DNA from: Sphingobium indicum B90A
GTDB lineage: Bacteria; Pseudomonadota; Alphaproteobacteria; Sphingomonadales; Sphingomonadaceae
NCBI RefSeq assembly: GCF_000264945.2
Contig: NZ_CP013070.1
Span: 372,001-436,000 of the forward strand
Length of the DNA: 64,000 nucleotides
Direction of reading: 5' to 3'
Shown: one piece after another, positions 22,495 to 36,244 of the stretch
Numbering within the stretch: position 1 is the first letter of the stretch
Layout of the letters: every line of letters begins with the position of its first letter
Notes under the pieces: model-generated
The model's database searches: none
Seen by the model: only the letters and a program-made list of their open reading frames with translations
What the model was told of the DNA's origin: nothing
Translations under genes and position numbers: made by a program

Positions 22495-23607
22495 TCATTT
22501 TTCGCCCTCGTCGTCATCCGTGTCGTCATGAACGCCAGGGGCGTCATTCAAGCGGCGAAGTTCTGCGTTCAGCTGCTCCAGCCTAGCCCGAAGCGAGTTT
22601 CGATCCATGGTCTTCCGATCGAACTCGGTACCCGGCGTTCCAGAAAGCGCCTGTACGACACGCTCGCGCTCATCCTCGAGATCAGAGATCCTGTCGCGCA
22701 GAGCCGCCGCCTCGTCGGCGTTGCGCTGGCGGCGACGCGCGCGCTCGTCGTCTCGAAGGCTTTGCGCGACAACCTCGACCGTTTTCTTGATCTCCGGATG
22801 TCGATCACCAGCAACGCGCAGGAAGTTCATGAACTCATAGATGTGGAAATCCTGCCCCGAGCCAGCGCTGAACTCCTCGACCAGTTCAGGTCGCGGACCG
22901 AGCTTGCGGCCGCGATGAAGCCACCACCAATCCTCCTTCACGTCATCGGATATGAAGATGACGGGCCGCCCCTCTGCCTTTGCCTTGTCGATCATGTCAC
23001 GCCAGATGATCAGGTCGCCAAATTTGTCGCCATCGCCGTCCTTCTTGGCGTCCTTGTACCCTGGCGGGACTTTTCTGGCGTAGCGGTCCTCGCCCTCCTT
23101 CTTGAGGGAGGCCAGTCGCTCCGGCGGCCAGCGTTCGCCGACACGGCCCTCAAGCAATTCCGTCAGCTTTGTGATCGCGGCCGCGATCTCCATCTTGGGG
23201 TGGTCGCCGCGCGCATTGTTCATTCGCGCACGGAACCCGGTCAGGAAGGTGTCGATCGCCGCCAGTTCAGCGGCACCATCGATGACCGGGTGCGCGCGCA
23301 TCTGTCGCAATCTCTCGCGCGCTTGATTCAATGCGCTGTCATAGTCGGCGATCAGCTTTTCATAAGCATCCTCCGCGCCAATCTCGACATCCAGCCGATT
23401 GCGATGAAACTCGAGACCCACCTGGTGCGGAATCCACAGCGACTCGCGCAAGGTTTCGAACACCCGCAAGAGTTCGTCACGCACCGGCGCGGGATGCCGG
23501 ATGCAATGCAAGAGGACATTCGCGTCAGGAACGAACAGCGCGTGGTCCCATAGGGTGGCGAGCGCGCTGGCGTCCTTCGGATACCATCCCTTGAAGCGAT
23601 CCCTCAT
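22495..23607 (-). CDS. PIN-like (PIN_8/DUF4935) nuclease-domain protein
   Basis: 370 residues. The N-terminus reads WDHALFVPDANVLLHCIRHP with the first PIN acidic residue at Asp28. Later GDGDKFGDLIIWRDMIDKA and VIFISDDVKEDWWW supply the other acidic positions, as in the PIN_8 group of predicted RNA or DNA nucleases. The C-terminal 100 residues are a long charged coiled coil (RARRRQRNADEAAALRDRIS) with an acidic end. The ATG overlaps the stop of the upstream gene (ATGA), so it is the last member of the restriction operon. An effector or toxin role is inferred. Confidence 0.85.
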   Translation of the reverse strand: MRDRFKGWYPKDASALATLWDHALFVPDANVLLHCIRHPAPVRDELLRVFETLRESLWIPHQVGLEFHRNRLDVEIGAEDAYEKLIADYDSALNQARERLRQMRAHPVIDGAAELAAIDTFLTGFRARMNNARGDHPKMEIAAAITKLTELLEGRVGERWPPERLASLKKEGEDRYARKVPPGYKDAKKDGDGDKFGDLIIWRDMIDKAKAEGRPVIFISDDVKEDWWWLHRGRKLGPRPELVEEFSAGSGQDFHIYEFMNFLRVAGDRHPEIKKTVEVVAQSLRDDERARRRQRNADEAAALRDRISDLEDERERVVQALSGTPGTEFDRKTMDRNSLRARLEQLNAELRRLNDAPGVHDDTDDDEGEK

Positions 23608-24137
23608 TCGTCGTCCAGCCATTCCATCCGCGCGATGCCAAGCCGCCGCGCTGCTTCCTTCACCAACTCGCGCCGCTTGGGATCCTCCGTCTGGCCGCTT
23701 TCCACAAGGACGACACCGAAGGGAGACGCATTGCGCGAGGCGCCGCGTTCGAAGACGGCGAGCAGGATCGACTTCCATTCCCGGCTGCGTCCCCAGCACA
23801 GGACGCGACCATCCTCCAACCTGAGCCCGTGTGGCTTGATGAAGCGCTCCGGTGCGTCACCGACCGCCTCAATTCCAAGCGTGGCGAGCACGACATCCTC
23901 GCTGCCGAGCAGACGCTCGCGAACATAGGGTTTGACCAGCGTGTCCTTGATGTAGACCCGCACGGCGCGAGCATCCATCAGGTGCGCCAGCTGCCCACCG
24001 ATCGAAGGATCCCTCGTCCAGCGCTCATAGAATGGCGCGCGCTCGGCATAGGGCAGCGACATCCAGCCCCGCTCGTCGCACTCGGCCCAGAGCTTGGCCT
24101 GTATCGCGTCGCGGATTTGTAGCGGCAGCTTGCTCAT
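23604..24137 (-). CDS. unrecognised 177-residue protein of the restriction operon
   Basis: The protein is soluble and mixed alpha/beta by eye, and I recognise no domain. Notable segments are MSKLPLQIRDAIQAKLWAEC, YIKDTLVKPYVRERLLGSED, GRVLCWGRSREWKSILLAVF and the acidic end MEWLDDE. Both ends overlap neighbours by four bases (ATGA type), between the Mrr-helicase and PIN genes, so its production is tied to theirs. It may be an adaptor, an inhibitor or a specificity factor; nothing in the sequence decides this. Confidence 0.8.
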   Translation of the reverse strand: MSKLPLQIRDAIQAKLWAECDERGWMSLPYAERAPFYERWTRDPSIGGQLAHLMDARAVRVYIKDTLVKPYVRERLLGSEDVVLATLGIEAVGDAPERFIKPHGLRLEDGRVLCWGRSREWKSILLAVFERGASRNASPFGVVLVESGQTEDPKRRELVKEAARRLGIARMEWLDDE

Positions 24138-25807
24138 TGGACCGCCCCGCTTGGCGGCACTGGCGGAAAGTCGAAGGCGGGCAGCTCAAGGGTCGGATCT
24201 CCCTCGCGCGTGAACAGATCCGCCTGATCCTTCATCCAGTCCAGCATGAAACTACCCGCGCTCTCGTCACGGAACTGGATCACTCCAGGCATCCGAAGGC
24301 GCTCGACATCACCACGCACTGCCTTCTCCAGCTCGACCACCTCTGCGAGCCGCCGGAGGTCGCTGACGAAGTCGATCACCACCACCTTGTCCTTGTTCGG
24401 GCTGATGCGCAGCCCACGCCCGAGTTGTTGGACGAAAATGCGCCGGCTGTGGGTAACCCGCATGAACACGATCATATCAACATCCGGCACATCGACGCCC
24501 TCGTTGAACAGGTCGCGCGTGGTGATGACATCAATCGAGCCCTTGCGGAACGCGGTCATCAGGCGGTCCCGCTCACGGCCCGACATTTCACCGGTGATGG
24601 CCTCCGCCTTGAAGCCGAACAGGCGTAGCGTGCCGGCGAAGCTGTGAGCGTGCGTGACGGATGAGCAGAAGACGATCGCGCTCCTCCGGCGCTCCGTGTC
24701 GAATGTGGCGCGTATCGATCGCGCGGCCTCCTCGTCCCGCGTCGGCAGCAAGAGCAACTTGTTGAGCTGGTTGAGCGAGTAGCTGTTGCGTGAGCTGTTG
24801 CGCACGAACTCCCAGTCAATGTTATCTGCGAGCAGCCGATAGTCCGCCTCACATAGGAAGCCACGCTTCAAACCCTCCGCGATTCCGATCCGAATCACAG
24901 CGGGGCCCAGCAGATGATCGATATCATAGCCATCGCCACGCCATGGCGTCGCGGTGACCCCGCCAATCATCGCGTCCGCCAATCGGTCAGTCACCCGCGC
25001 GAAGCTTTCCGAGCCGACATGATGCGCCTCGTCGATCAGCAAAAGCCCGAAATCAGGCAGATCGTCTAGGCGCGAAACCGCGCTTTGAACCGTCGCGAAG
25101 GTGATCCCGTCCCAGTCGCTGGGCTGCTCGCCTCCCATCAGGCGATGCGTCCCGACCCAAGTGGGAAGCTGATCCCAGAACGCGCGTTGGAGCTGATCCA
25201 CAAGCTCTCGGGTGCCGGCGAGGACCAGCGCGCGCCCATGGGGTATCGCTTCATCCCTGAACATCTGGGCCACGCTCTCGGCGAGCACCACAGTCTTGCC
25301 AAGACCAGTCGCCAGCACGGCCTGCGCTCGCCCGGTCTCCCGCAGCGCGCCGACGAACTGCTCAACCGCCTCGTCCTGATAATCGCGCAGGTCCCGGCGT
25401 CGCGGCGGATATTCTGGGCTGCGGCGCGCCATCTCCAACAAGGTGGCCGGCTCGAGGATGCCGATCTCCAACCCAAGCGCTGCCCAGCGGCGCGTCGCCG
25501 TCTGCATCGCGGGGCCAGCGCGACGACTGGTCGCGACATAGATCCGCTCCGCGCCGTAATAGCGCGCTGCGTCGCCGACCTCATCGACGGCGGAGGGAGA
25601 GGGATATCCATTGGTTGTGAACTTGCACTGGATGACCCAGAGTTGGCCGGCCTTCACGCCCAGCACATCGGCGCCCTTATCCCCCGCGCCGCCCACGATG
25701 CGCACATCGTCGAAGCCGTTGCAGATCAACAGGCGGGCCACGTCACGCTCGAACGCGCGCCACGGGCCAAGCAACAAGCGCCGCGCGTCGAGGAAGGGCT
25801 CGCTCAT
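24134..25807 (-). CDS. Mrr-type nuclease domain fused to SF2 helicase
   Basis: 557 residues. Residues about 15-125 form an Mrr-like restriction endonuclease domain (GGAGDKGADVLGVKAG then QLWVIQCKF, with Asp47 and Gln60-x-Lys62 as candidate active-site residues). From residue 138 an SF2 helicase follows, with a Q-type motif RDYQDEAVE, Walker A ATGLGKT (Lys171), LLLIDEAH (259-262), TATPWRGDG and the arginine finger motif QQLGRGLR. It would couple ATP-driven DNA translocation to cleavage. The ATG at 25807 overlaps the stop of the GHKL gene; a longer frame upstream is only that gene's shadow. Confidence 0.92.
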   Translation of the reverse strand: MSEPFLDARRLLLGPWRAFERDVARLLICNGFDDVRIVGGAGDKGADVLGVKAGQLWVIQCKFTTNGYPSPSAVDEVGDAARYYGAERIYVATSRRAGPAMQTATRRWAALGLEIGILEPATLLEMARRSPEYPPRRRDLRDYQDEAVEQFVGALRETGRAQAVLATGLGKTVVLAESVAQMFRDEAIPHGRALVLAGTRELVDQLQRAFWDQLPTWVGTHRLMGGEQPSDWDGITFATVQSAVSRLDDLPDFGLLLIDEAHHVGSESFARVTDRLADAMIGGVTATPWRGDGYDIDHLLGPAVIRIGIAEGLKRGFLCEADYRLLADNIDWEFVRNSSRNSYSLNQLNKLLLLPTRDEEAARSIRATFDTERRRSAIVFCSSVTHAHSFAGTLRLFGFKAEAITGEMSGRERDRLMTAFRKGSIDVITTRDLFNEGVDVPDVDMIVFMRVTHSRRIFVQQLGRGLRISPNKDKVVVIDFVSDLRRLAEVVELEKAVRGDVERLRMPGVIQFRDESAGSFMLDWMKDQADLFTREGDPTLELPAFDFPPVPPSGAVQ

Positions 25808-28134
25808 CAGACCGCGACGTCGGGACGCAGAAGGCGCAGGGAGCAGGTCGCCCTGATAATCGCGTCCCGGGAGGCGCGTTCTATCTCGGCCGGGGTCTGC
25901 TCGGACAGCCAGATCACATCGCCGAGATAGGCATCGTAGCGCGCGACCGTCGCCTGCCGAGCCTCGGCGGTGATCTCGGGATCGCCAAAGTCGATCGCCT
26001 GATGCGGCTCGTCCCAATAGCGTCCGTCGAGAAACAGCTCGGGGCGGCGATTAAAGAGGCCTCGCACCGTGGCGCCATCGGCGTAGTCCCAGGAGCGCCC
26101 GTCCTCGATCAGAGCGCGAGGGTCGGGAACGCCGCGACCGGCCATCCTGCGCGCCATCGCCGCCCGGTCGCGCTCGACCAATTCGTCATGGATGGGGACA
26201 GCGTCGGCCGATGGAATGAGCGCGCTCACCGCGCGGCACAGGTCGGCGATGGCGTTGGTGGCGAGGCCGATGATCTCCTGTGCGTCCAGCCGCGTGTCCA
26301 CGCTGTAGACCGAGCGGAAGTCCGCCAGCACGGCGCCCGTCGTCGCCTCCATGCTCTGCCCGCGGAGGAACTCGATCGTTCGATGCGTGAGCTCCACGAG
26401 CATCGCGTCGAGCGGGGTCATCGTGGTCGAGCGGAATATCTCGTGGGTAGCGTCGAACAGATAGGCGTAGGTCCGTGTCGACACATCCTCCAGCCGCACG
26501 ATCCAAGGCTGACCCGGTGGGAGGTCAGGATCTCCCGGCTCCACCGCGAACGCTTGAATGTCATATTCGACACGGAAGGTAGGATGGACATAGCGGCGCG
26601 ACAACTCGTGGACGGGGCGACGCGCGGGCGGCGGGGGCGCGGGCGAGGGTGCTGCCTCCTCGCGCGGATTTTCGTCAGTTGGCGGATCTGGCGGCGAGGC
26701 GTCGCCGAGGAACCCGTCCGGCACTGGCGGGGGCGGCGCGTTGGGACCATCGCCCAGAATGCGGCGATCCTGTTCCTCGATCAGCTGCCACCAGCGCTCG
26801 TCGGACAGAAATTCGACCTCGTCCTTGGCGAACTCGGCGGCCATCTGCTGCGCCCGGTCATTATCCTGCACGACGAGGACGCGGGACCACAGGCCGTTCT
26901 TGCCCTGCGGGCTGCTGCGGCGGAACGCCTGAAACAGCTTGTAGAGCGGACTGTGATTGTCGGTGTGGCCCAGCTGCCGCGCGGCGTTCGGGCGGAGCGG
27001 CCCATCCCCGCGAACGACCCGGACCATCTCGGCCCATGCCGGATCATCGCGCTCGAAGCGGTTCTTGGTGTAGCTCACCTGGCAATGGTCGAGGTGGATC
27101 TCCCCGATGAAGCGACCACGGCTTCGCGGATCGTCGATGGGATATTCCACCTCAACGCTGTCGCCGTCAGACCAGTTGAATAGATCCTTGTTGCCAATCT
27201 CGATCTTGCGGCCATTGCGGATGAGGTCGAGACCGAACTCGCTCTTATCGAGATAGCGTTGCAAGCCCACCCAGCCGCGAAGCCGTCGCGGCGTCTCCAC
27301 CACCGCGCAGCTGTCACCGCCGGTCGGGCAGCTCTCCTCGTCGCTGGCGAGGGTTCGCATGCAGTGGTTGCAGAATCGGCGTGGCGCGAGCGGCACGTCG
27401 AAGCTCTCGACCGCGTTGACGATCGTGCCGTCGGTCAATTCCACCGAGCGCTCCGCGCTCCACACGCATGGCCTGAGCGGGTTGATCCGGGAATTCGAGA
27501 CCTCGAGGCGGATGGTCCCGACCTCGGATGTGCTCAATAGCGAGGAATAGGCGCGCGCGAGGTGCTTGCGGATCGTCGAGCGATTATTCGCCTTCGCGAG
27601 ATAGGCGCGCTGCTCGGGCTTGAGCCGCGTGATCGTGATGTCGGTGCCGTGACGAGCTGGGTCCGTCTTTGGTCTGGTCTGTCGCGGGACGCGGTAGTTG
27701 CCAGTCGAGCGCAACTCATTGAGATCGATCCGAACTCCGACCCATTCGGGGTCCCCGGCGCGCGTGGTCCAGACCTCGGTCACCATGCCCATGCGAGCGG
27801 TTGCGATGTTGAAGCCCATGCCGAAAAGGCCGAGCTTCGACAGCGCGTCATTGCCCGACCAGCCCGCCCTCAGCGCGTTCTCGAGCGTGTCGATCGACAT
27901 GCCGGGACCATTGTCGGTGACCTGGATCCGGGAGCTCTCGCTGTTGGTCGTGGGAATGGCGACGCTGACCTGCGGCCGGTCGATTGGCTGGTCGGCGCGC
28001 GCCGCGTCGATGAAGCCATCGATGGAATTGTCGATCAATTCGGCGAGACAACGCCACACCTCGAGATTGATCTCGCCAAGCATCTGAAGGACGCGCGGCG
28101 CGGGCGTGAGGTCGAGTTCCTGATCCTGTGACAT
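25807..28134 (-). CDS. MORC/MutL-like GHKL ATPase
   Basis: 775 residues. The N-terminal GHKL ATPase fold is clear: CLAELIDNSIDGFIDAA (Glu32, Asn36), VTDNGPGMS (74-80), LGLFGMGFNIATARMG and GTDITITRL. A cysteine-rich insertion (FCNHCMRTLASDEESC) may bind zinc. A Pro-rich linker near residues 455-490 leads to a C-terminal domain of unknown type. GHKL ATPases of this kind in restriction operons were described as relatives of eukaryotic MORC proteins (Iyer, Abhiman and Aravind). They probably act as ATP-dependent DNA clamps. The gene starts 17 bases after vsr. Confidence 0.9.
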   Translation of the reverse strand: MSQDQELDLTPAPRVLQMLGEINLEVWRCLAELIDNSIDGFIDAARADQPIDRPQVSVAIPTTNSESSRIQVTDNGPGMSIDTLENALRAGWSGNDALSKLGLFGMGFNIATARMGMVTEVWTTRAGDPEWVGVRIDLNELRSTGNYRVPRQTRPKTDPARHGTDITITRLKPEQRAYLAKANNRSTIRKHLARAYSSLLSTSEVGTIRLEVSNSRINPLRPCVWSAERSVELTDGTIVNAVESFDVPLAPRRFCNHCMRTLASDEESCPTGGDSCAVVETPRRLRGWVGLQRYLDKSEFGLDLIRNGRKIEIGNKDLFNWSDGDSVEVEYPIDDPRSRGRFIGEIHLDHCQVSYTKNRFERDDPAWAEMVRVVRGDGPLRPNAARQLGHTDNHSPLYKLFQAFRRSSPQGKNGLWSRVLVVQDNDRAQQMAAEFAKDEVEFLSDERWWQLIEEQDRRILGDGPNAPPPPVPDGFLGDASPPDPPTDENPREEAAPSPAPPPPARRPVHELSRRYVHPTFRVEYDIQAFAVEPGDPDLPPGQPWIVRLEDVSTRTYAYLFDATHEIFRSTTMTPLDAMLVELTHRTIEFLRGQSMEATTGAVLADFRSVYSVDTRLDAQEIIGLATNAIADLCRAVSALIPSADAVPIHDELVERDRAAMARRMAGRGVPDPRALIEDGRSWDYADGATVRGLFNRRPELFLDGRYWDEPHQAIDFGDPEITAEARQATVARYDAYLGDVIWLSEQTPAEIERASRDAIIRATCSLRLLRPDVAV

Positions 28135-28151
28135 CCAATCTCCGCCGCGGG

Positions 28152-28595
28152 CTACCCAGTTTTTCCTGGCCGCCGCAGCGCGGCCTGGATTTCCGTGATG
28201 ATCATGTCGAGAGGCTCAGCGCCGAGTTGGCATTCCCAAATCTCGAACACTCGCCATCCCCCCGCCTCAAGCTTAGCCTTAACCGCCTCGTCGCGCGACC
28301 TATTTCCCCGCAACTTTGGTTCCCAGAACTCCTGCCTCGACTTCGGCATGCGCGCCAGCTTGCACGCCGGATCTGGATGCTGATGCCAAAAGCACCCGTG
28401 CACGAATATCGCGACCTTGCGCTTGCGGAACACGATGTCCGGTCTGCCGGGCAGGTCCTTGGCCTGGAGGCGGTAGCGCAGGCCAGCCGCGTGTAGCGCG
28501 CGTCGCACCCGCAACTCAGGCTTGGTGTCGCGTCCCCGGATGAGACGCATGCGCGCGCTGCGCTCCGGGTCGATTTCGTCAGTCGTCCGCGCCAC
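28152..28595 (-). CDS. vsr: Vsr-type DNA mismatch endonuclease
   Basis: 147 residues, the normal Vsr length. It aligns by eye with E. coli Vsr: RMRLIRGRDTKPELRVRRAL, LPGRPDIVFRKRKVAIFVHG, CFWHQHPDPACKLARMPKSR then EFWEPKLRGNRSRD. Glu27, Asp53, His66 and His71 correspond to catalytic and metal-binding positions, and the zinc cysteines are present. Vsr nicks T:G mismatches left by deamination of 5-methylcytosine, which suits the neighbouring C5 methylase. The GTG at 28595 lies inside the end of the endonuclease gene (17-base overlap). Confidence 0.92.
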   Translation of the reverse strand: MARTTDEIDPERSARMRLIRGRDTKPELRVRRALHAAGLRYRLQAKDLPGRPDIVFRKRKVAIFVHGCFWHQHPDPACKLARMPKSRQEFWEPKLRGNRSRDEAVKAKLEAGGWRVFEIWECQLGAEPLDMIITEIQAALRRPGKTG

Positions 28596-29526
28596 CAACC
28601 TCCTCCTCGGAGGGGCCGGCCGCGTCCTCATTGGGACCGACCTCTCGCTCGTTGGCGCCCCCGCCATTCTGCCTGAACCCCTTGAGCATTTCCTCGAGAA
28701 GCGCGGCGTGATCGCGGCGGGGCGGCACGCGCTCCAGCGTGGCCGCGATCCGGGCGGCGATCTCGTCGGGCGAAAGCGAGTTCTGGAGCCGCTCGTCAAG
28801 CGCCCACTGCCGGCCGGGATGCACTACGTCCCACGGCGAGCGCTTGTTGGCCCGGGTCGAGGCGGCATCGCCATGCTTGCTCATGCCCCAACACGCCTTT
28901 GTTTCGGCATTCCACACGGGCCAAAACGTGCGGATGAGATGCTTCTCGGCCACAAGCTGAGCATTTGTGGCGCAGACTAGGCGGCGGGAGAGGAAGTCCT
29001 CAAGTCGGATGGGTGACAGGCCATTGGGCAGTTGATCAGCATATCCGGCGGCGGTCGCGATCGTGCCCGCATGCTCCAGAAGGCGCGCCGTCAAGCGCGC
29101 GCCTTGCTCGCGGGTGGTGCTGGCATCATCGTTCGCCGGGTCGGCCTTGCCGACATAGATTGGGGTCTCGGACCGGGAGATCCCGGCGTAGAGCGGATGA
29201 TCACCAGAATAATAGATCGCGTAGACACCCGAGCCATAAGACGACCTGATATCGGTCAATCGAACCAACGGCTGGGCGAGCAGCGCCAAGGACACCATGC
29301 GACCCACGATCTTGGGATCGGAGGGATCGAAGGTCGCGCTTGGCATGCGCACGGTGTCAGTGACAGCTCGCGCCGTCTCCACGGCCACCGCATGCGCCGA
29401 CAGACCCTCGCGGATTCGCCGAACCACGGCCTGTGGTGGGTTCTCGCCAGCGGCGGCGAGCACCGCGTCGAGCGCGTCCTGCAAGGCATTGATCGCTGCG
29501 CGATCCGGTGACAGTGCCATTCCCAC
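28579..29526 (-). CDS. Eco29kI-family GIY-YIG restriction endonuclease
   Basis: 315 residues. The central part has the GIY-YIG core with a double-tyrosine first motif (SGVYAIYYSGDHPLY, residues 99-113) and TPIYVGKADP (121-130), then TREQGARLTARLLEHAGTI, AEKHLIRTFWPVWNAE and CWGMSKHGDA, the layout of Eco29kI-type enzymes. Eco29kI itself cuts CCGCGG. The specificity here is not proven, but the match and the adjacent C5 methylase make this the cutting enzyme of a type II system. The C-terminal 30 residues are low-complexity Gly/Glu-rich. Either Met1 or Met3 could be the start. Confidence 0.88.
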   Translation of the reverse strand: MGMALSPDRAAINALQDALDAVLAAAGENPPQAVVRRIREGLSAHAVAVETARAVTDTVRMPSATFDPSDPKIVGRMVSLALLAQPLVRLTDIRSSYGSGVYAIYYSGDHPLYAGISRSETPIYVGKADPANDDASTTREQGARLTARLLEHAGTIATAAGYADQLPNGLSPIRLEDFLSRRLVCATNAQLVAEKHLIRTFWPVWNAETKACWGMSKHGDAASTRANKRSPWDVVHPGRQWALDERLQNSLSPDEIAARIAATLERVPPRRDHAALLEEMLKGFRQNGGGANEREVGPNEDAAGPSEEEVGGADD

Positions 29527-29581
29527 CCCCTCGCCGGGCGGGCGCCAGCGAATCAGATATCGTCAATCCCGCGCGACCTAG

Positions 29582-30742
29582 CTAGGCGGCGCGGCGCCGT
29601 GACGCCAGCGCTCGGACGCCGCCCAGGAGATCAACGACGCGGCGCGCCGCCGCCTCGGCGAGAGGCACCGGAACGGCGTTGCCCATTTGGCGCATGCTCT
29701 CGCTCCACGAGCGCGGAAAGCTGAACGCATCCGGCAAGCCGACGAGGCGCGCGGCCTCGCGCTTGGTGAAATAGCGCACCGAGCCATCGTCGCGCACCAT
29801 CATGTTCTCACCGCCCGGGACCCCGTGATCGCCCGCCTTGAGCGCCTTCGCCGGCAGGTCGAGCGGACTACCGGTGTGACCCGCGTAGACACGCGCGCCA
29901 TGCTGCGCGACGTGACCATTCTCGCCATTGGGTTCGCCGAGATCAACGAGCACATCACGGACGGTCCGCCAGGGTTCGCCCTGGGGCTCGACACTCGCCG
30001 CGCGAATGGCGGCGACACGCCGCTGATCGTCACGCCGCGACGGCGCGGCGCGGCGCTTCAGGCCATGCCGATCCCAATAGGTCCCGGTGACATACTGGTC
30101 CCAGAGCAAGCGGTCGCGCGAGTGGGTCGCCGGCATCGGCGTCGGCTCGACACCCTGATCCGCCCTCAGCCCGATAATGATCACACGGTGACGAATCTGC
30201 GCCGCGCCGAGATCGGCAGCGTTGACCACCTGCCAGCAGGCGCGATACTCGCGATCGGCGTCGCTGCCGCGCAGTCGCGCGGTGTGATCCGCCAACGCCT
30301 CGCCCGGCCGGCGCGTGATCGATGGCCGCTCAAGATGCGCCACGATCCAATCCAGATACTCGCGAAAGCGGGGACCAGCGAGATTGCGGACATTCTCGAA
30401 AAGGAACGCGCGGGGTCGGCCCTCGCGCACGGCGCGGACCGCCTCAGGCCACATGTCGCGCGTGTCGGCCTGACCCATCTTCTTGCCGCCAATCCCGAAC
30501 GGCTGACAGGGCGGGCCGCCGGAGATGAGGTCGAGTCCACGATGGGCCGACCAGTCAATGTCACGGACATCGAGCTGATCCATTGGCCAGTGCGCGACAT
30601 GCGCGACGCCGGCCGCGCGGTTGTGGCGCACCGTCTCCACCGCGTCGAAGTCGAACTCGGCCATCAGCTCATGTCGAAAGCCCAGGAGGGACATTCCCAT
30701 CGCCAATCCGCCGCATCCGGCGAAGAGTTCAGCGCTCCGCAT
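29582..30742 (-). CDS. DNA (cytosine-5)-methyltransferase
   Basis: 386 residues with all key C5-methylase motifs: AELFAGCGGLAMG (SAM binding), ISGGPPCQPFG with catalytic Cys79, LFENVRN (Glu116), AAQIRHRVIIIG (Gln182/Arg184/Arg186) and MRQMGNAVPVPLA at the C-terminus. The target-recognition region lies between about residues 200 and 290. It protects host DNA from the endonuclease encoded 55 bases downstream. It starts 12 bases after the small ribbon-helix-helix gene, behind GGAGAAGG. Confidence 0.96.
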   Translation of the reverse strand: MRSAELFAGCGGLAMGMSLLGFRHELMAEFDFDAVETVRHNRAAGVAHVAHWPMDQLDVRDIDWSAHRGLDLISGGPPCQPFGIGGKKMGQADTRDMWPEAVRAVREGRPRAFLFENVRNLAGPRFREYLDWIVAHLERPSITRRPGEALADHTARLRGSDADREYRACWQVVNAADLGAAQIRHRVIIIGLRADQGVEPTPMPATHSRDRLLWDQYVTGTYWDRHGLKRRAAPSRRDDQRRVAAIRAASVEPQGEPWRTVRDVLVDLGEPNGENGHVAQHGARVYAGHTGSPLDLPAKALKAGDHGVPGGENMMVRDDGSVRYFTKREAARLVGLPDAFSFPRSWSESMRQMGNAVPVPLAEAAARRVVDLLGGVRALASRRRAA

Positions 30743-30754
30743 CTTCGCCTTCTC

Positions 30755-30931
30755 CTAATCCAACGGAAGCATCGGCCCGCCGGCACGATGCTCCAGAAAT
30801 CTCTCAATGGCCTTGCGCACCAGCCAAGCGACCTTCACGCCGTCGGCCTCCGCCAGTCTCTCCAGCTCGGCCTTCTGGCGACGGCTCAAAGTCGTCGTGA
30901 CCCTCTCGGCGTCGCGGCCATCCTTGCCCAT
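30755..30931 (-). CDS. ribbon-helix-helix (CopG/Arc-type) small regulator
   Basis: 58 residues beginning MGKDGRDAERVTTTLSRRQK. The strand ERVTTTL followed by helices KAELERLAEADG and VAWLVRKAIERFLEHR is the ribbon-helix-helix pattern of CopG/Arc-like repressors. It is the first gene of the restriction operon, 12 bases before the methylase, and the repeated dyads just upstream (30941-30986) are candidate operators. It is shorter than most ORF cut-offs and could be missed in automatic annotation. Its role as operon regulator is inferred. Confidence 0.75.
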   Translation of the reverse strand: MGKDGRDAERVTTTLSRRQKAELERLAEADGVKVAWLVRKAIERFLEHRAGGPMLPLD

Positions 30932-30940
30932 TCAACGTCT

Positions 30941-30986
30941 CCGCAGCGGTCCGCGGCATTCCGCGGCGTTTCGGCACAATGCCGAA
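30941..30986 (-). promoter_or_regulatory. tandem CCGCGG dyads and palindrome before the restriction operon
   Basis: Two CCGCGG palindromes (30951-30956 and 30961-30966) are spaced exactly 10 bp, one helical turn, next to the dyad CCGCAGCGG (30941-30949). Beyond them is the perfect palindrome TTCGGCA-CAA-TGCCGAA (30970-30986). They lie 10 to 55 bases upstream of the ribbon-helix-helix start. A possible promoter reads TTGAGT, 17 bases, CATTGT on the minus strand across this region. The one-turn spacing fits ribbon-helix-helix operators, and CCGCGG is also the Eco29kI target. Confidence 0.55.
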
Positions 30987-32130: not shown

Positions 32131-32931
32131 ATGCCTCTCACGCTGATACCGATATCGCATGGAACTCTTTGTCATGGCTCGCGGTGGACCGTTTCCGACG
32201 AGGACGATCTTGCCAGCAAGGTCGCGCGCTTGGCGCTTGGGCAGACGCGACATGTAGCAGCGATCCTGACCGGTATCGACAAACGGCCGCCTGTCACCCG
32301 CGCGGACACGGCGGCCGGTGCGATCAAACTGCTGACCGTGCCGAAGGATAAGCCCCCGTATCATCGCGATGGCTGGGTTTTCCAGGCGATCTCATGGATC
32401 GCGGCGCACCGTGCCGATGCCGGAGCGGTGATCCGCGCGCCGCATATGATTCATGCGCACAAGGGCTTTGATGGCTTCCAGTTGAAACTCGATGAGTCCG
32501 GCCAGACCGTCTCAGCGGTGGTGATTTTCGAGGACAAGGCGACGGAGAACCCGCGCAGCACGATCGCTGGAGATGTGTGGAAAGGCATCCGAGATCTGGA
32601 AAGCGGACTGCGCATGAACGAACTGATCCCGGAGGCTGGCGGCCTACTCGAAGCCCACCAGCAACGATTTCCCGAACTCGATATTGACGGTGCGGTGGAA
32701 CGGATAGCCTGGGAGGAAGCCCGGCATTTTCGTGTCGCGGTCACAGCCGACATAGCTCATGACAATGACGACGCGCGAGCTGCACTGTTTAAGGGGTTTG
32801 ACGAGGTTGCGCCTGGGCTCGCGAGTCGCCGCCAAGCGGAAACCATTGCGATCCCGAAGCTGCGCGACTGGATGAAGGCTTTTTCGGCTAAGGCGATCAA
32901 GCAAATCGAGGCATGGCGGGACGATGTTTGA
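32131..32931 (+). CDS. HamA-like PD-(D/E)XK nuclease protein (Hachiman-type pair)
   Basis: 266 residues. The centre reads AHKGFDGFQLKLDESGQTVS then AVVIFEDKATENPRSTI, giving Asp114 and Glu134-x-Lys136, a PD-(D/E)XK nuclease pattern. In Hachiman systems HamA (DUF1837) is such a nuclease and is always followed by an SF2 helicase, HamB. Here the helicase start overlaps this stop by eight bases. The remaining helices (GDVWKGIRDLESGLRMNELI) also suit that family. A related nuclease/helicase pair such as AbpAB is the alternative. The assignment is by motif and context only. Confidence 0.6.
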   Translation: MPLTLIPISHGTLCHGSRWTVSDEDDLASKVARLALGQTRHVAAILTGIDKRPPVTRADTAAGAIKLLTVPKDKPPYHRDGWVFQAISWIAAHRADAGAVIRAPHMIHAHKGFDGFQLKLDESGQTVSAVVIFEDKATENPRSTIAGDVWKGIRDLESGLRMNELIPEAGGLLEAHQQRFPELDIDGAVERIAWEEARHFRVAVTADIAHDNDDARAALFKGFDEVAPGLASRRQAETIAIPKLRDWMKAFSAKAIKQIEAWRDDV

Positions 32932-35900
32932 TCCTGTCACGATCGACCTTATCAGAGGCGCACCGCCACTTGGCGACCTCGACTTTTCCGAGCTGCCCCA
33001 ACGCTTCACCAATGCCTTCGCCGAAATCGTCGCAGCGCGAGTCCGGCTGCGAGGTGCCACAACGGTCGAGCAGCGCGGCGAAGCCTTTATTGAGCTGCTT
33101 TCGGAGATGCGCCGTCTGGCGGCGGCGCAGGAGCTGCTCGTCGCAACTGCGCCGGAGCGTGCCGACCGCGCCTCGGCCGCATTCGTGGCCGGCACCGCAC
33201 ACCAGCTGTGCCTCATGGCCGAGACCGTCGTAGCCGAAGGCGAGCCGTGTTTTTCCAGCATTAACGCTATCCATGCCGATCATGACATCTGCGCGACGCT
33301 GCTGTTCTTGATCGCGGACTCGCAGAGCGACGCTGCCGAGATGGCCAAGCGGCTCAAGCGTCCGGACGGCGACCTGAGCGCCGAAGGTCGACTGGTCGCC
33401 GCGATCGCCGACTTGGCTAATGGCCGTCTGCGCGAAGTGATCACCAGCGAGGTCGACGAAGACAATTTCGAATTCTACGATCCTCCATCTGATACAACCG
33501 CCAGCGGTATCGCAGTGGAAGCGCTTCTTCGCCGGCTGCACGCGGGCGTCATCCAGCTCGCGCGTGAGCTGCTCGTTCCACCACACGAGGGCGTCGCGGC
33601 GGATGCGATCCCGGAATCGCGCCGCATTTTCGCCCAGGTGCGCGACCTTTCCGTCACCCCGATTGAAGGTGTGTTCGAAGAGGATGGTCCCGAGGTCTTC
33701 AGTTCCTTTCCCGGTCCGCTCCACATCGCCAAGCTGCTGCTGGCGGTGTCGGGCGATCTGGCCGAAGCAGCACTTTGCCGGGTTCCTGCGCCGAATGGCA
33801 TCGACCCAAGCGCGTGGTGGCAGGTCATTCGCCGGGCCGCGCGCAAGCGCCCCTATCTCTGGCGAAATCACCGCGAGGCGCTGGAGAAGGGCTATCTCGC
33901 GAAAGGCGTTTCGGCGGCGGTCAGCTTCCCAACCGGGGGAGGCAAGTCGACGCTGGCAGAACTTAAGATCGCTGCGGCGCTGCTTGGCGGCGGACAGGTC
34001 GTTGTGCTCGCGCCGACACTGGCGTTGGTCGACCAGACCGCCTTCACGCTTGGCAATGCGTTTAAGGACTATACCGTTCTCGGCGATCTCGACGACGAGA
34101 TCACCTTCTCCGACGTCCTCGAGCTTCCGGAGATAATCGTCACCACGCCCGAGCGCTGTCTCGTGCTGCAGTCGATACAGCCGGAAGCATTCGCGCAGGT
34201 CGCGCTCGTTGTGTTCGACGAGTGCCACCTCATTCATCCTCGCGAATCCGACCGCAGCCGGCGGGCGATCGACGCAATGCTGTGTATCCTAAATCTCACT
34301 AGCTATGCGCCCGGTGCCGACCTGTTGCTCGTATCTGCGATGATGCAGAACGCCGAAGAGATGGCCGGCTGGGTGGCCGAGCTCACCGGCCGCCCTTGCC
34401 TCCCGCTCGACCTCGCTTGGAAGCCGACCCGCCAGGCCCGCGGCTGCGTGGCCTATGAAGCCGCGCGCATCACCGAGCTCAACGAACTGCTCGCCACGGA
34501 ACAGCTCACCGCGACCACTAAGGGCGTGCCCAAGCCTCTCGCAAGCCGCCTCGATGCGGCGCCCTTTGCCTTTTTCTGCCTGCGGCAGACCTGGGCGACC
34601 CGCAAGCGCGACGACTATGCGCTGATGGCGCTGCTTGACGAGGCGGTGCCGTTCGCGACCGGCGTGTCAGAAAAATCCGGCGACTGGTATATGACGCCGA
34701 ACGGCAACATCGTCGCGGGTACGATCGCCGCGGCAGCAGCCGAGGACGGCCTCAAGACCCTGACCTTCGTCCAGAGTACGATCGCCGCCGAATCCACCGT
34801 CCGGCATTTTCGTAGCCTGCTGCCCAAGCGTCGCGTCGTGCTCACCGAGGAGGAGCAAGGTTGGCGCAAGCTGGTCGAGGAAGAGATGGGCGGGCCGCAG
34901 CACTGCTATCTCAAGCTAGACGCTTCCGGCCAGGTTGATGGGAGCGCCACCAGCCATCACGGCCAGCTGCTTAAGCCCGAGCGCATGCTGCACGAGTCGT
35001 TATTCAAGCGGCGTGACGGTGTCGACGCCCTGTTCGCAACTTCGACCCTGGCGCAGGGCATGAACCTGCCGAGTGACGTGGTCCTGATCGCCGGCGACAG
35101 CCGCTGGGACGTGTCGGACGACAAGTTCAAGCAGCTGGACGCGCACGAACTGCTCAATGCCGCCGGCCGGGCCGGGCGTGCGGGCGAAGGCGGCCAGGGC
35201 TTTGTGCTGGTGGTGCCGAGCAAGATCATAAACATCGATGATGTTGACAATACGATCCATCGCCACTGGATGTCGCTCCAGAGCATCTTCTCGCAGTCGG
35301 ACCAGTGCTTGCAGATCGATGACCCGATAACCGGCCTGCTGGATCGCATCCACATGCATGCGCACGAAGGCAATGAGGACTATTTCCTTGCCCGACTGCC
35401 AGTCGGCGAGTCGGATGCGCCCGACGAACCCGCCAAGGCCATGATCCGTCGATCCTTCGCCGCGTACCGCAAGCGCCAGGAAGGCAAGGCCGAGTGGATT
35501 GAAAGCCGCATCGTCGCAGCGCTTGCGCGCCGTGACGAGCTGGCGCCGAAGCAGGACCTGAACTGGCTCGAGCGAGTGGCTGCCTCCGCGGGGCTACCCT
35601 ATGAGGTCGTCGCCAGCCTGGCCGCGCTGATCGAGGCGGGGGCGTTTGACGGTGACAGCACGGACTGCATGAATAGGTTGTTTGAGTGGATCGAGGCCAA
35701 CCCGACCTGGTTGATGCACCTGATCAGGCCCAACGACATCGAAGGGCTGTTTGGGAAGGACTATCGTGCGATCGCCGGCAATGCCGCCAAGGCGAAGGTC
35801 GCCTTGCCGCAGATCAGGCCGCTGCTGACCGCATGGATGGCGGGAAAGCCGCTCTGCGAACTCGAACGGGCGATCGGAACCAAGGAGCATCTTATCAAGA

Positions 35901-36244
35901 CCTGCGAGACCGCGCGGCACTTCGCGGTTCGCCTTGTTCCGGACTTGGCCTTCGTCGCCGGCCTGCCGGCACGCATACTCGCGGCAAGAGCCGTGGCGGC
36001 TGGAAAAGAGCCTGTCATGCCGATTGTCTTGCAGACTTTGAGCGGCGTGGTCCGCAAGGGCTGCGCAAGCGCTGAGCAACTCGCGAACGCGGTGCATCTG
36101 AACTCGGATTCACGGCCCGCTGCTCGTGCGCAGTTCCTGCAGATCGAGCGCCATATTCCAGCGGGCGAACCCTTCGAGACTTTTGACACCGTCCTTGAGC
36201 GGGTCCGGCATGCTCATCTGCTCGCAATGTTCGACGAACTCTAG
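32924..36244 (+). CDS. HamB-like DEAD/DECH-box SF2 helicase
   Basis: 1106 residues. After a 320-residue helical N-terminus without recognised motifs comes a Ski2-like helicase core: AVSFPTGGGKSTLAELKIAA (Walker A, Lys341), VLAPTLALVDQ, IIVTTPERC, LVVFDECHLIHP (Asp432), LLLVSAMMQNAEEMAGW, then in the second lobe FATSTLAQGMNLPSD and LNAAGRAGRAGEGGQGFVLV. The long C-terminal 300 residues are helical and unassigned. Together with the upstream nuclease it forms a two-gene defence module. The upstream overlap implies coupled translation. Confidence 0.85.
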   Translation: MFDPVTIDLIRGAPPLGDLDFSELPQRFTNAFAEIVAARVRLRGATTVEQRGEAFIELLSEMRRLAAAQELLVATAPERADRASAAFVAGTAHQLCLMAETVVAEGEPCFSSINAIHADHDICATLLFLIADSQSDAAEMAKRLKRPDGDLSAEGRLVAAIADLANGRLREVITSEVDEDNFEFYDPPSDTTASGIAVEALLRRLHAGVIQLARELLVPPHEGVAADAIPESRRIFAQVRDLSVTPIEGVFEEDGPEVFSSFPGPLHIAKLLLAVSGDLAEAALCRVPAPNGIDPSAWWQVIRRAARKRPYLWRNHREALEKGYLAKGVSAAVSFPTGGGKSTLAELKIAAALLGGGQVVVLAPTLALVDQTAFTLGNAFKDYTVLGDLDDEITFSDVLELPEIIVTTPERCLVLQSIQPEAFAQVALVVFDECHLIHPRESDRSRRAIDAMLCILNLTSYAPGADLLLVSAMMQNAEEMAGWVAELTGRPCLPLDLAWKPTRQARGCVAYEAARITELNELLATEQLTATTKGVPKPLASRLDAAPFAFFCLRQTWATRKRDDYALMALLDEAVPFATGVSEKSGDWYMTPNGNIVAGTIAAAAAEDGLKTLTFVQSTIAAESTVRHFRSLLPKRRVVLTEEEQGWRKLVEEEMGGPQHCYLKLDASGQVDGSATSHHGQLLKPERMLHESLFKRRDGVDALFATSTLAQGMNLPSDVVLIAGDSRWDVSDDKFKQLDAHELLNAAGRAGRAGEGGQGFVLVVPSKIINIDDVDNTIHRHWMSLQSIFSQSDQCLQIDDPITGLLDRIHMHAHEGNEDYFLARLPVGESDAPDEPAKAMIRRSFAAYRKRQEGKAEWIESRIVAALARRDELAPKQDLNWLERVAASAGLPYEVVASLAALIEAGAFDGDSTDCMNRLFEWIEANPTWLMHLIRPNDIEGLFGKDYRAIAGNAAKAKVALPQIRPLLTAWMAGKPLCELERAIGTKEHLIKTCETARHFAVRLVPDLAFVAGLPARILAARAVAAGKEPVMPIVLQTLSGVVRKGCASAEQLANAVHLNSDSRPAARAQFLQIERHIPAGEPFETFDTVLERVRHAHLLAMFDEL

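What the first reader, a model, noticed from the sequence alone, without database searches (positions are those of the whole stretch)
22495..30931. Eight-gene restriction operon with MORC-like ATPase, Mrr-helicase and PIN nuclease
Seen: RHH regulator, C5 methylase, GIY-YIG (Eco29kI-type) endonuclease, Vsr, GHKL ATPase, Mrr-SF2 helicase, an unknown 177-aa protein and a PIN_8 protein in one minus-strand run, with stop/start overlaps at most junctions. Known: restriction operons with GHKL/MORC ATPases were described by Iyer, Abhiman and Aravind. Inference: the RM core has recruited an ATP-driven module plus a PIN nuclease, giving a layered system whose last two genes may act when restriction fails.
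Basis: partly seen in the sequence, partly recalled or inferred. Interest (0 to 1): 0.85.

Follow-up and report, generated by a model that had tools for sequence, protein, structure and literature searches.

The report
MORC-type restriction operon with self-site operator
An eight-gene bacterial defence operon joins a DNA-marking enzyme to an ATP-driven DNA-cutting machine with a conserved, so far unnamed third part, and the switch in front of the operon is built from copies of the very DNA site that the system probably marks and cuts.

Summary
The Eco29kI-type RM pair plus Vsr, GHKL ATPase and Mrr-helicase belongs to the MORC-linked restriction operons of Iyer et al. 2008. Three things go beyond that paper's text. 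(1) The unknown 177-aa protein is no late add-on: GHKL, Mrr-helicase and U177 form a contiguous triad in 39 of 41 genome loci, and their distances co-vary at r 0.97-0.98. U177's second half models as a restriction-endonuclease-like fold, tentatively, without canonical catalytic residues. (2) PIN_8 directly follows U177 in 24 of the 41 loci, nearly all in one clade; GIY-YIG is the most exchangeable part. (3) The RHH gene is preceded by 2-3 CCGCGG sites at exact 10-bp spacing in 14 of 14 loci (12 distinct), and in one more found blind. CCGCGG is the predicted target of this RM pair. Best reading: an ATP-dependent restriction complex tied to a CCGCGG methylase, Vsr guarding against m5C deamination, and an RHH regulator that may read operator methylation. 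A fallback role is unsupported for U177 and untested for PIN. New variant of a known kind.

The parts
30941..30966 (-). Operator: CCGCGG at 30951-30956 and 30961-30966, degenerate third copy CTGCGG (minus strand) at 30941-30946, 10-bp spacing, just upstream of the RHH start
   Evidence: conserved in 14 of 14 loci with an RHH gene over 50 bits (12 distinct)
30755..30931 (-). RHH (CopG/Arc-type) regulator, 58 aa
   Evidence: Pfam RHH_3 24.1 bits
29582..30742 (-). C5-cytosine DNA methyltransferase, 386 aa, predicted target CCGCGG
   Evidence: PF00145 174 bits; target-recognition region shared with an MTase encoded next to an Eco29kI-family enzyme
28579..29520 (-). GIY-YIG restriction endonuclease, Eco29kI family, 313 aa
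   Evidence: PF09517 94.5 bits; PDB Eco29kIR 3mx4 E 6.8e-15
28152..28667 (-). Vsr-type mismatch endonuclease (start uncertain: 28667, 28631, 28598, 28595 or 28550)
   Evidence: TIGR00632 143.7 bits; starts
25807..28134 (-). MORC-like GHKL + S5 ATPase, 775 aa, with a separate C-terminal region
24134..25807 (-). Mrr-nuclease / SF2 helicase fusion, 557 aa
   Evidence: catalytic residues invariant in 19 of 19 aligned rows
23604..24137 (-). U177: conserved third subunit; helical N-terminal half with a nearly invariant VRVYIKD helix, C-terminal half RE-like (tentative)
   Evidence: 157 homologs at E 0.001; model pLDDT 91; fold comparison
22495..23607 (-). PIN_8 nuclease with C-terminal coiled-coil-like tail, 370 aa
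   Evidence: PF18476 191 bits; acidic residues conserved

Best explanation
This is a composite restriction-modification operon. The C5-MTase marks host DNA, most likely at CCGCGG (inferred). Unmarked incoming DNA is attacked by the exchangeable Eco29kI-type GIY-YIG enzyme and by an ATP-dependent complex of the MORC-like clamp (GHKL+S5), the Mrr-nuclease/helicase and U177; U177 is best read as a DNA-binding or assembly subunit with a degenerate RE-like fold (inferred). Vsr repairs T:G mismatches left by deamination of the system's own m5C (established role of the family). PIN_8 is a later, mostly clade-specific effector coupled to the triad (association shown, action inferred). The RHH protein probably binds the tandem CCGCGG operator, so that MTase activity feeds back on expression of the whole operon (site architecture shown; binding and methylation effect inferred).
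For: Triad contiguous in 39 of 41 genome loci, a C5-MTase within the fetched stretch in 38 of 41. Independent seed: of 385 genomes of the same class, 3 (one of them the window's own) hold a full-length GHKL relative, and the same 3 hold U177. GHKL-seeded viral scan: U177 in 11 of 14 loci that reach past the helicase. Distance correlations GHKL/HEL/U177 0.97-0.98, PIN with the triad 0.91-0.94, MTase 0.84-0.86, Vsr 0.81-0.85, GIY 0.62-0.64. MTase and triad remain in 20 loci without a detected GIY-YIG gene (one of these contigs, L064, ends right behind the MTase); among 64 of 119 neighbouring ORFs of these loci (13 of the 20) no Pfam family matched more than 2 members. Target: the MTase recognition region is about as conserved as the rest (-4 to +15 points in 21 rows) and shared with an Eco29kI-type MTase; CCGCGG 24 seen, 44.6 expected in the window, the lowest ratio of the eight GC-only palindromic hexamers. 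Operator: 14 of 14 RHH loci; operator columns 0.86 conserved, left flank 0.43; all 23 ten-bp-spaced pairs among 856 CCGCGG sites of the loci fetched by then (copies included) lie there. A blind pattern scan of viral contigs found one more RHH+MTase leader, L301, with sites at -34, -24 and -14.
Confidence: 0.6

Rival explanations
1. Repair, not restriction: the triad is a MutL/UvrD-like follow-up to Vsr that repairs m5C-deamination mismatches or self-inflicted cuts of the host chromosome.
For: MTase in 38 of 41 and Vsr in 34 of 41 loci; GHKL is of the MutL superfamily; in L096 a HhH-GPD glycosylase stands near the helicase instead of Vsr, so deamination control may matter here.
Against: 7 of 41 loci have no detectable Vsr (one of them, L050, lacks the triad too, and L037 and L055 are short contigs); the helicase carries an intact Mrr nuclease; neighbours include CBASS, AbiEii and other defence genes.
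Confidence: 0.15
2. Type IV-like restriction: the Mrr-helicase complex attacks foreign modified DNA and is only housed beside the RM genes.
For: Mrr D...QxK intact in 19 of 19 rows; PADLOC's best helicase match is a type IV enzyme, 142.9 bits.
Against: Near-constant company of a C5-MTase (38 of 41) would be self-toxic for an m5C-directed enzyme unless its site differs; the type IV match covers the helicase domain only.
Confidence: 0.12
3. Layered abortive defence: PIN, perhaps with U177, kills or arrests the cell when restriction fails.
For: PIN is last in the operon with an ATGA overlap, has its acidic residues and was gained late (2 changes on the triad tree).
Against: U177 is core, not accessory. 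PIN_8 relatives of 26-42% identity in 41 viral loci (some partial matches) stand without GHKL or U177, so PIN_8 proteins at large need no triad. No toxicity data.
Confidence: 0.2
4. The tandem CCGCGG block is an RHH operator whose consensus merely coincides with the RM target; methylation plays no part.
For: RHH repressors such as Omega bind repeats cooperatively in their own promoters (PMC3874152, passage); a spacing of one helical turn fits RHH dimers (general knowledge).
Against: The operator core equals the independently predicted RM target in all 14 loci; decayed third copies are mostly CTGCGG or CCGCAG, the two products of C2 deamination (5 of 6 decayed copies in 12 distinct loci, related lineages not corrected for).
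Confidence: 0.3

Closest known systems
MORC/paraMORC restriction operons (Iyer, Abhiman, Aravind 2008, PMC2292703, whole text read, figures and supplement not seen)
   Same: GHKL+S5 ATPase with Rad25-like SF2 helicase fused to an N- or C-terminal RE-fold nuclease, cytosine methylase and Vsr
   Different: The text names no U177-like third subunit with this helicase type, no PIN protein, RHH regulator or operator; their supplementary neighbourhood list may hold some of these
Eco29kI-type RM systems (CCGC/GG)
   Same: GIY-YIG REase of the same Pfam family next to a C5-MTase with the same recognition-region signature
   Different: The pair on Salmonella pC (L144) stands without RHH, Vsr or triad. 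PMC10855626 (passages) mentions V and 'helicase domain' H elements beside some m5C CCGCGG systems, so part of this arrangement has been noted
GHKL-fused Shedu VcSduA (PMC12137116, passages)
   Same: GHKL ATPase coupled to a nuclease in anti-phage defence, tested there
   Different: Single protein with a DUF4263 nuclease; no helicase, MTase or U177 described in the passages
RM systems regulated by methylation of their own site (CfrBI; seen only as a reference title in PMC3874152)
   Same: Own recognition site in the control region
   Different: Here 2-3 phased copies with a dedicated RHH gene in front of an eight-gene operon
Omega-type RHH repressors of toxin-antitoxin operons (PMC3874152, passage)
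   Same: RHH gene first in the operon, repeats in the leader
   Different: Repeats here equal a predicted methylation target

Membership tests
MORC/paraMORC restriction operons | GHKL ATP-binding motifs | tested here: met
   E32, N36, D39, D74, G78, G102, G105, G107 invariant in 32 of 32 rows
MORC/paraMORC restriction operons | S5-fold domain after the GHKL domain | tested here: met
MORC/paraMORC restriction operons | MORC-specific GhXhhpXXRhl motif (as given in PMC2292703) | tested here: inconclusive
   GLDLIRNGRKI at 301-311; the residue after R is K, or V in 2 of 19 aligned rows, where the motif wants a hydrophobic one; MORC proper or paraMORC cannot be decided
MORC/paraMORC restriction operons | Linked SF2 helicase, C5-MTase, Vsr | tested here: met
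Eco29kI-type type II RM | GIY-YIG REase of the Eco29kI family next to a C5-MTase | tested here: met
Eco29kI-type type II RM | Recognition of CCGCGG | tested here: inconclusive
   Similarity of recognition region, site depletion in the window, operator; no activity test possible
PD-(D/E)XK nuclease superfamily (for U177) | RE-like fold | tested here: inconclusive
PD-(D/E)XK nuclease superfamily (for U177) | D...(D/E)xK in core strands | tested here: not met
   No conserved (D/E)xK in modelled strands; the helix motif (D/E)WK becomes WE or WR in distant homologs
PIN nuclease | Conserved acidic residues | tested here: met
   E66, D198, D221, D222 in 12 of 12; D28 in 11 of 12, the exception (L028) having its N-terminal part in another frame
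Known anti-phage systems in PADLOC-DB 2.0.0 | Model for GHKL, U177 or PIN protein | tested here: not met
   No GHKL or U177 match at E 0.01; PIN only a GajB match at E 0.0065

The most novel reading that the evidence does not exclude
The operon carries a methylation checkpoint: an RHH regulator binds phased copies of the system's own recognition site, so the MTase's progress over the host genome is sampled at the promoter and gates a composite RM/MORC machine whose obligate third subunit, U177, is a new degenerate RE-fold component.
Probability: 0.4. Interest if true: 0.75.

Novelty: new variant of a known kind. Interest (0 to 1): 0.58.

Why it matters
Prokaryotic MORC-type ATPases were predicted in 2008 to act in restriction and proposed as the source of eukaryotic MORC chromatin proteins (PMC2292703); in the listings of five searches I saw no experimental work on this operon type. 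The work defines a minimal unit to express (MTase, GHKL, Mrr-helicase, U177), points out an overlooked near-obligate subunit, and gives a simple testable control circuit in which an RM system may read its own methylation mark.

Tried and rejected
Rejected: U177 as an accessory gene. U177 as a canonical nuclease. The BLIP-II match of U177 covers 23 residues around a DGRVxxWG turn and is taken as chance. Foldseek alone gave no match at E 0.001 for U177 in PDB or viral models. PIN_8 paper search by name returned mostly plant auxin papers; the 12 papers shown for PF18476 hold no occurrence of it. GenBank phage records hold no GHKL relative at 1e-15. Flank searches in 21 genomes of the genus, the own one included, gave no clean empty site. 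Contig-length matching of listed protein hits as a proxy for linkage: 25 of 73 listed U177 contigs of 4 kb or more share their exact length with a listed PIN contig, 0.2 expected; but 69 of 95 PIN contigs were not shared, so close PIN homologs outside the triad remain possible. In 385 genomes PIN rang in 4, two of them distant relatives in genomes without U177. The search for a substitute REase in GIY-less loci scanned 64 of 119 ORFs and printed 25 of 51 families, so single nuclease genes may have been missed; HNH-like or GmrSD genes stand beside a few loci. Some GIY-YIG genes were counted by similarity to members below Pfam's own cut-off. Rows dropped before counts: 49 of 70 loci (window included) were kept for distances and trees, identical, broken or cut-off ones left out; RHH hits under 50 bits.

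A control for the operator pattern: 385 genomes hold 12 exact matches of CCGCGGANNGCCGCGGA in 11 genomes, one being the window's own operator; the pattern read backwards occurs 32 times. So the pattern alone is not informative; its position is. Of 92 stretches with the pattern checked (own operator and its genome stretch included), only the own one and L301 have RHH and MTase beside it.
Full report
OBSERVATION. The eight ORFs are real, contiguous and intact. Gene order on the minus strand: RHH, C5-MTase, Eco29kI-family GIY-YIG, Vsr, GHKL ATPase, Mrr-helicase, U177, PIN_8. Three junctions are 1-4 nt overlaps, so the last four genes are probably translationally coupled; the others have short gaps or, for GIY/Vsr, an overlap that depends on the Vsr start.

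CONSERVATION. A scan of one genome per species with a U177 alignment gave 41 loci; by record titles they come from Alpha-, Beta-, Gamma- and Deltaproteobacteria, a Spirochaetaceae bin, a Planctomycetaceae bin, a BD2-11 bin and Paenibacillus. Counting the whole set: GHKL in 40 of 41, helicase in 40 (a 41st, L050, has only a 30-bit remnant, and scores on the borderline), the contiguous triad in 39, a C5-MTase in 38, Vsr in 34, an Eco29kI-like GIY-YIG in 25, PIN in 24. After removing loci with identical U177, of 37: 36, 36, 35, 34, 30, 22, 20. PIN stands directly after U177 in all 24. Plasmids: the helicase occurs in 4 records at E 1e-60 and all 4 carry a U177 relative (Ruegeria, Pseudosulfitobacter, Deinococcus, Rhodococcus); close PIN relatives in 2. 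A fifth record, Streptomyces, has a GHKL relative without helicase or U177. In the Pseudosulfitobacter record an IS3-type transposase gene lies between the GHKL gene and a detached C-terminal piece of it.

INDEPENDENT SEEDS. In 385 genomes of the same class, 3 (the own one included) hold a full-length relative of the GHKL protein and the same 3 hold U177 (one cut by a contig end; a fourth U177 match is weak and partial). A GHKL-seeded scan of viral contigs gave 16 loci: the helicase follows in 15 (the sixteenth contig ends inside GHKL), and U177 in 11 of the 14 that reach past the helicase; L090, L096 and L098 lack it. A helicase-seeded scan gave 76 loci, largely the same contigs: 17 belong to the Mrr-helicase type; 16 of these show GHKL (the other contig begins inside the helicase) and 13 of 16 evaluable ones U177; the other 59, which match only the helicase domain, have none of GHKL, U177 or PIN beside them. 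PIN-seeded viral loci, 41, have neither GHKL nor U177; one distant triad found by the GHKL seed (L092) does have a PIN gene on the other strand.

WHICH GENES FORM THE UNIT. Distances between 49 of 70 loci correlate at 0.97-0.98 among GHKL, helicase and U177; PIN with these 0.91-0.94 (21 loci); MTase 0.84-0.86; Vsr 0.81-0.85; GIY-YIG 0.62-0.64. Every value exceeded 300 label shuffles, as shared ancestry alone would make them do, so only the ranking is informative. On the triad tree PIN needs 2 changes, GIY 5, Vsr 6. L026 sits among the window's closest relatives in the triad tree but has a different MTase (50% identity to the window; the seven other close relatives 66-75%) and GIY (34%; the others 74-79%): an RM-cassette swap under a constant triad and PIN. 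Yet its recognition region is more like the window's (59%) than the rest of its MTase (44%), which suggests that the target was kept.

TARGET AND OPERATOR. Eco29kI-family enzymes cut CCGC/GG (PMC10855626, passages). The MTase recognition region shares most of a GARxYPGHTGSxxDxPxKxLKAGxHGVPGGEN signature with the MTase next to an Eco29kI-family enzyme on Salmonella pC. In the 64-kb window CCGCGG is seen 24 times where 44.6 are expected, the lowest ratio of the eight GC-only palindromic hexamers. The only two CCGCGG sites within 60 bp of each other in the window lie 20-35 bp upstream of the RHH start. All 14 loci with an RHH gene over 50 bits (12 distinct) have 2-3 copies at exact 10-bp spacing at the same place. 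Across 12 distinct loci the 36-bp block is 0.86 conserved, the 60 bp to its left 0.43. Six of the 12 have a decayed third copy; five are CTGCGG or CCGCAG, as expected if the second C is the methylated one and is lost by deamination. A blind pattern scan of viral contigs gave 85 stretches, of which one, L301, has RHH and MTase, with sites at -34, -24 and -14 from the RHH start. Loci without such an RHH have no 10-bp-spaced cluster; a few have CCGCGG pairs at other spacings, mostly inside genes.

MECHANISM. Shown: gene linkage, active-site residues, operator architecture. Inferred: MTase marks CCGCGG; GIY-YIG and the MORC/Mrr-helicase/U177 complex attack unmarked DNA, the GHKL dimer closing on DNA as MORC and MutL proteins do (family knowledge); Vsr limits C-to-T damage; PIN adds an unknown nucleolytic step; RHH reads the operator. 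Two polarities are open: RHH binding preferentially to unmethylated sites would hold the operon down until the MTase has worked; preference for methylated sites would give a burst on entry.

LITERATURE LIMITS. Iyer et al. 2008 was read in full text without figures or supplement; PMC10855626, PMC3874152, PMC8011034, PMC3710099 and PMC12137116 in passages. That U177, this PIN link and this operator are not in print rests on the listings of searches of an open-access library only.

Noticed in passing
window 32131-36244 (+): Divergent neighbour pair: 1106-aa DEAD-box helicase with HamB matches (PADLOC 104 bits) preceded by an overlapping 266-aa protein without family match, so perhaps a Hachiman-like system; the HamA identity is untested.
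   Followed up: partly
L041-L049, L051-L053, L055, L059, L060, L062, L064, L065; e.g. L045:5148-5846 (-): A protein of about 220-290 aa (three members without Pfam, NCBIfam or PHROG match where tested) is encoded divergently just upstream of GHKL in 18 loci of the PIN-less clade.
   Followed up: partly
L057, L058 (phage contigs), 394-3999: C5-MTase followed by U177, then a FRG-domain and a GmrSD_N protein, without GHKL or helicase between them; the contigs begin about 400 nt before the MTase. U177 may act with an MTase alone.
   Followed up: no
L096, L098: Instead of U177 and Vsr a 254-aa unknown protein follows the helicase, then a HhH-GPD glycosylase (Pfam-tested in L096 only), a possible stand-in for Vsr.
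   Followed up: partly
L143 (Deinococcus plasmid pDrdI): MTase-GHKL-helicase-U177 lies next to genes annotated nucleotidyltransferase, E2/UBC, Mov34 and SAVED (CBASS-like).
   Followed up: no
L020/L021, L030/L031, L039/L040: The operon gives identical scores and coordinates in records of different genera or even phyla, which may be very recent transfer or mis-binned or contaminated assemblies.
   Followed up: no
L022: A decaying copy: MTase, Vsr, GHKL and helicase genes are split while GIY, U177 and PIN are in one piece.
   Followed up: no
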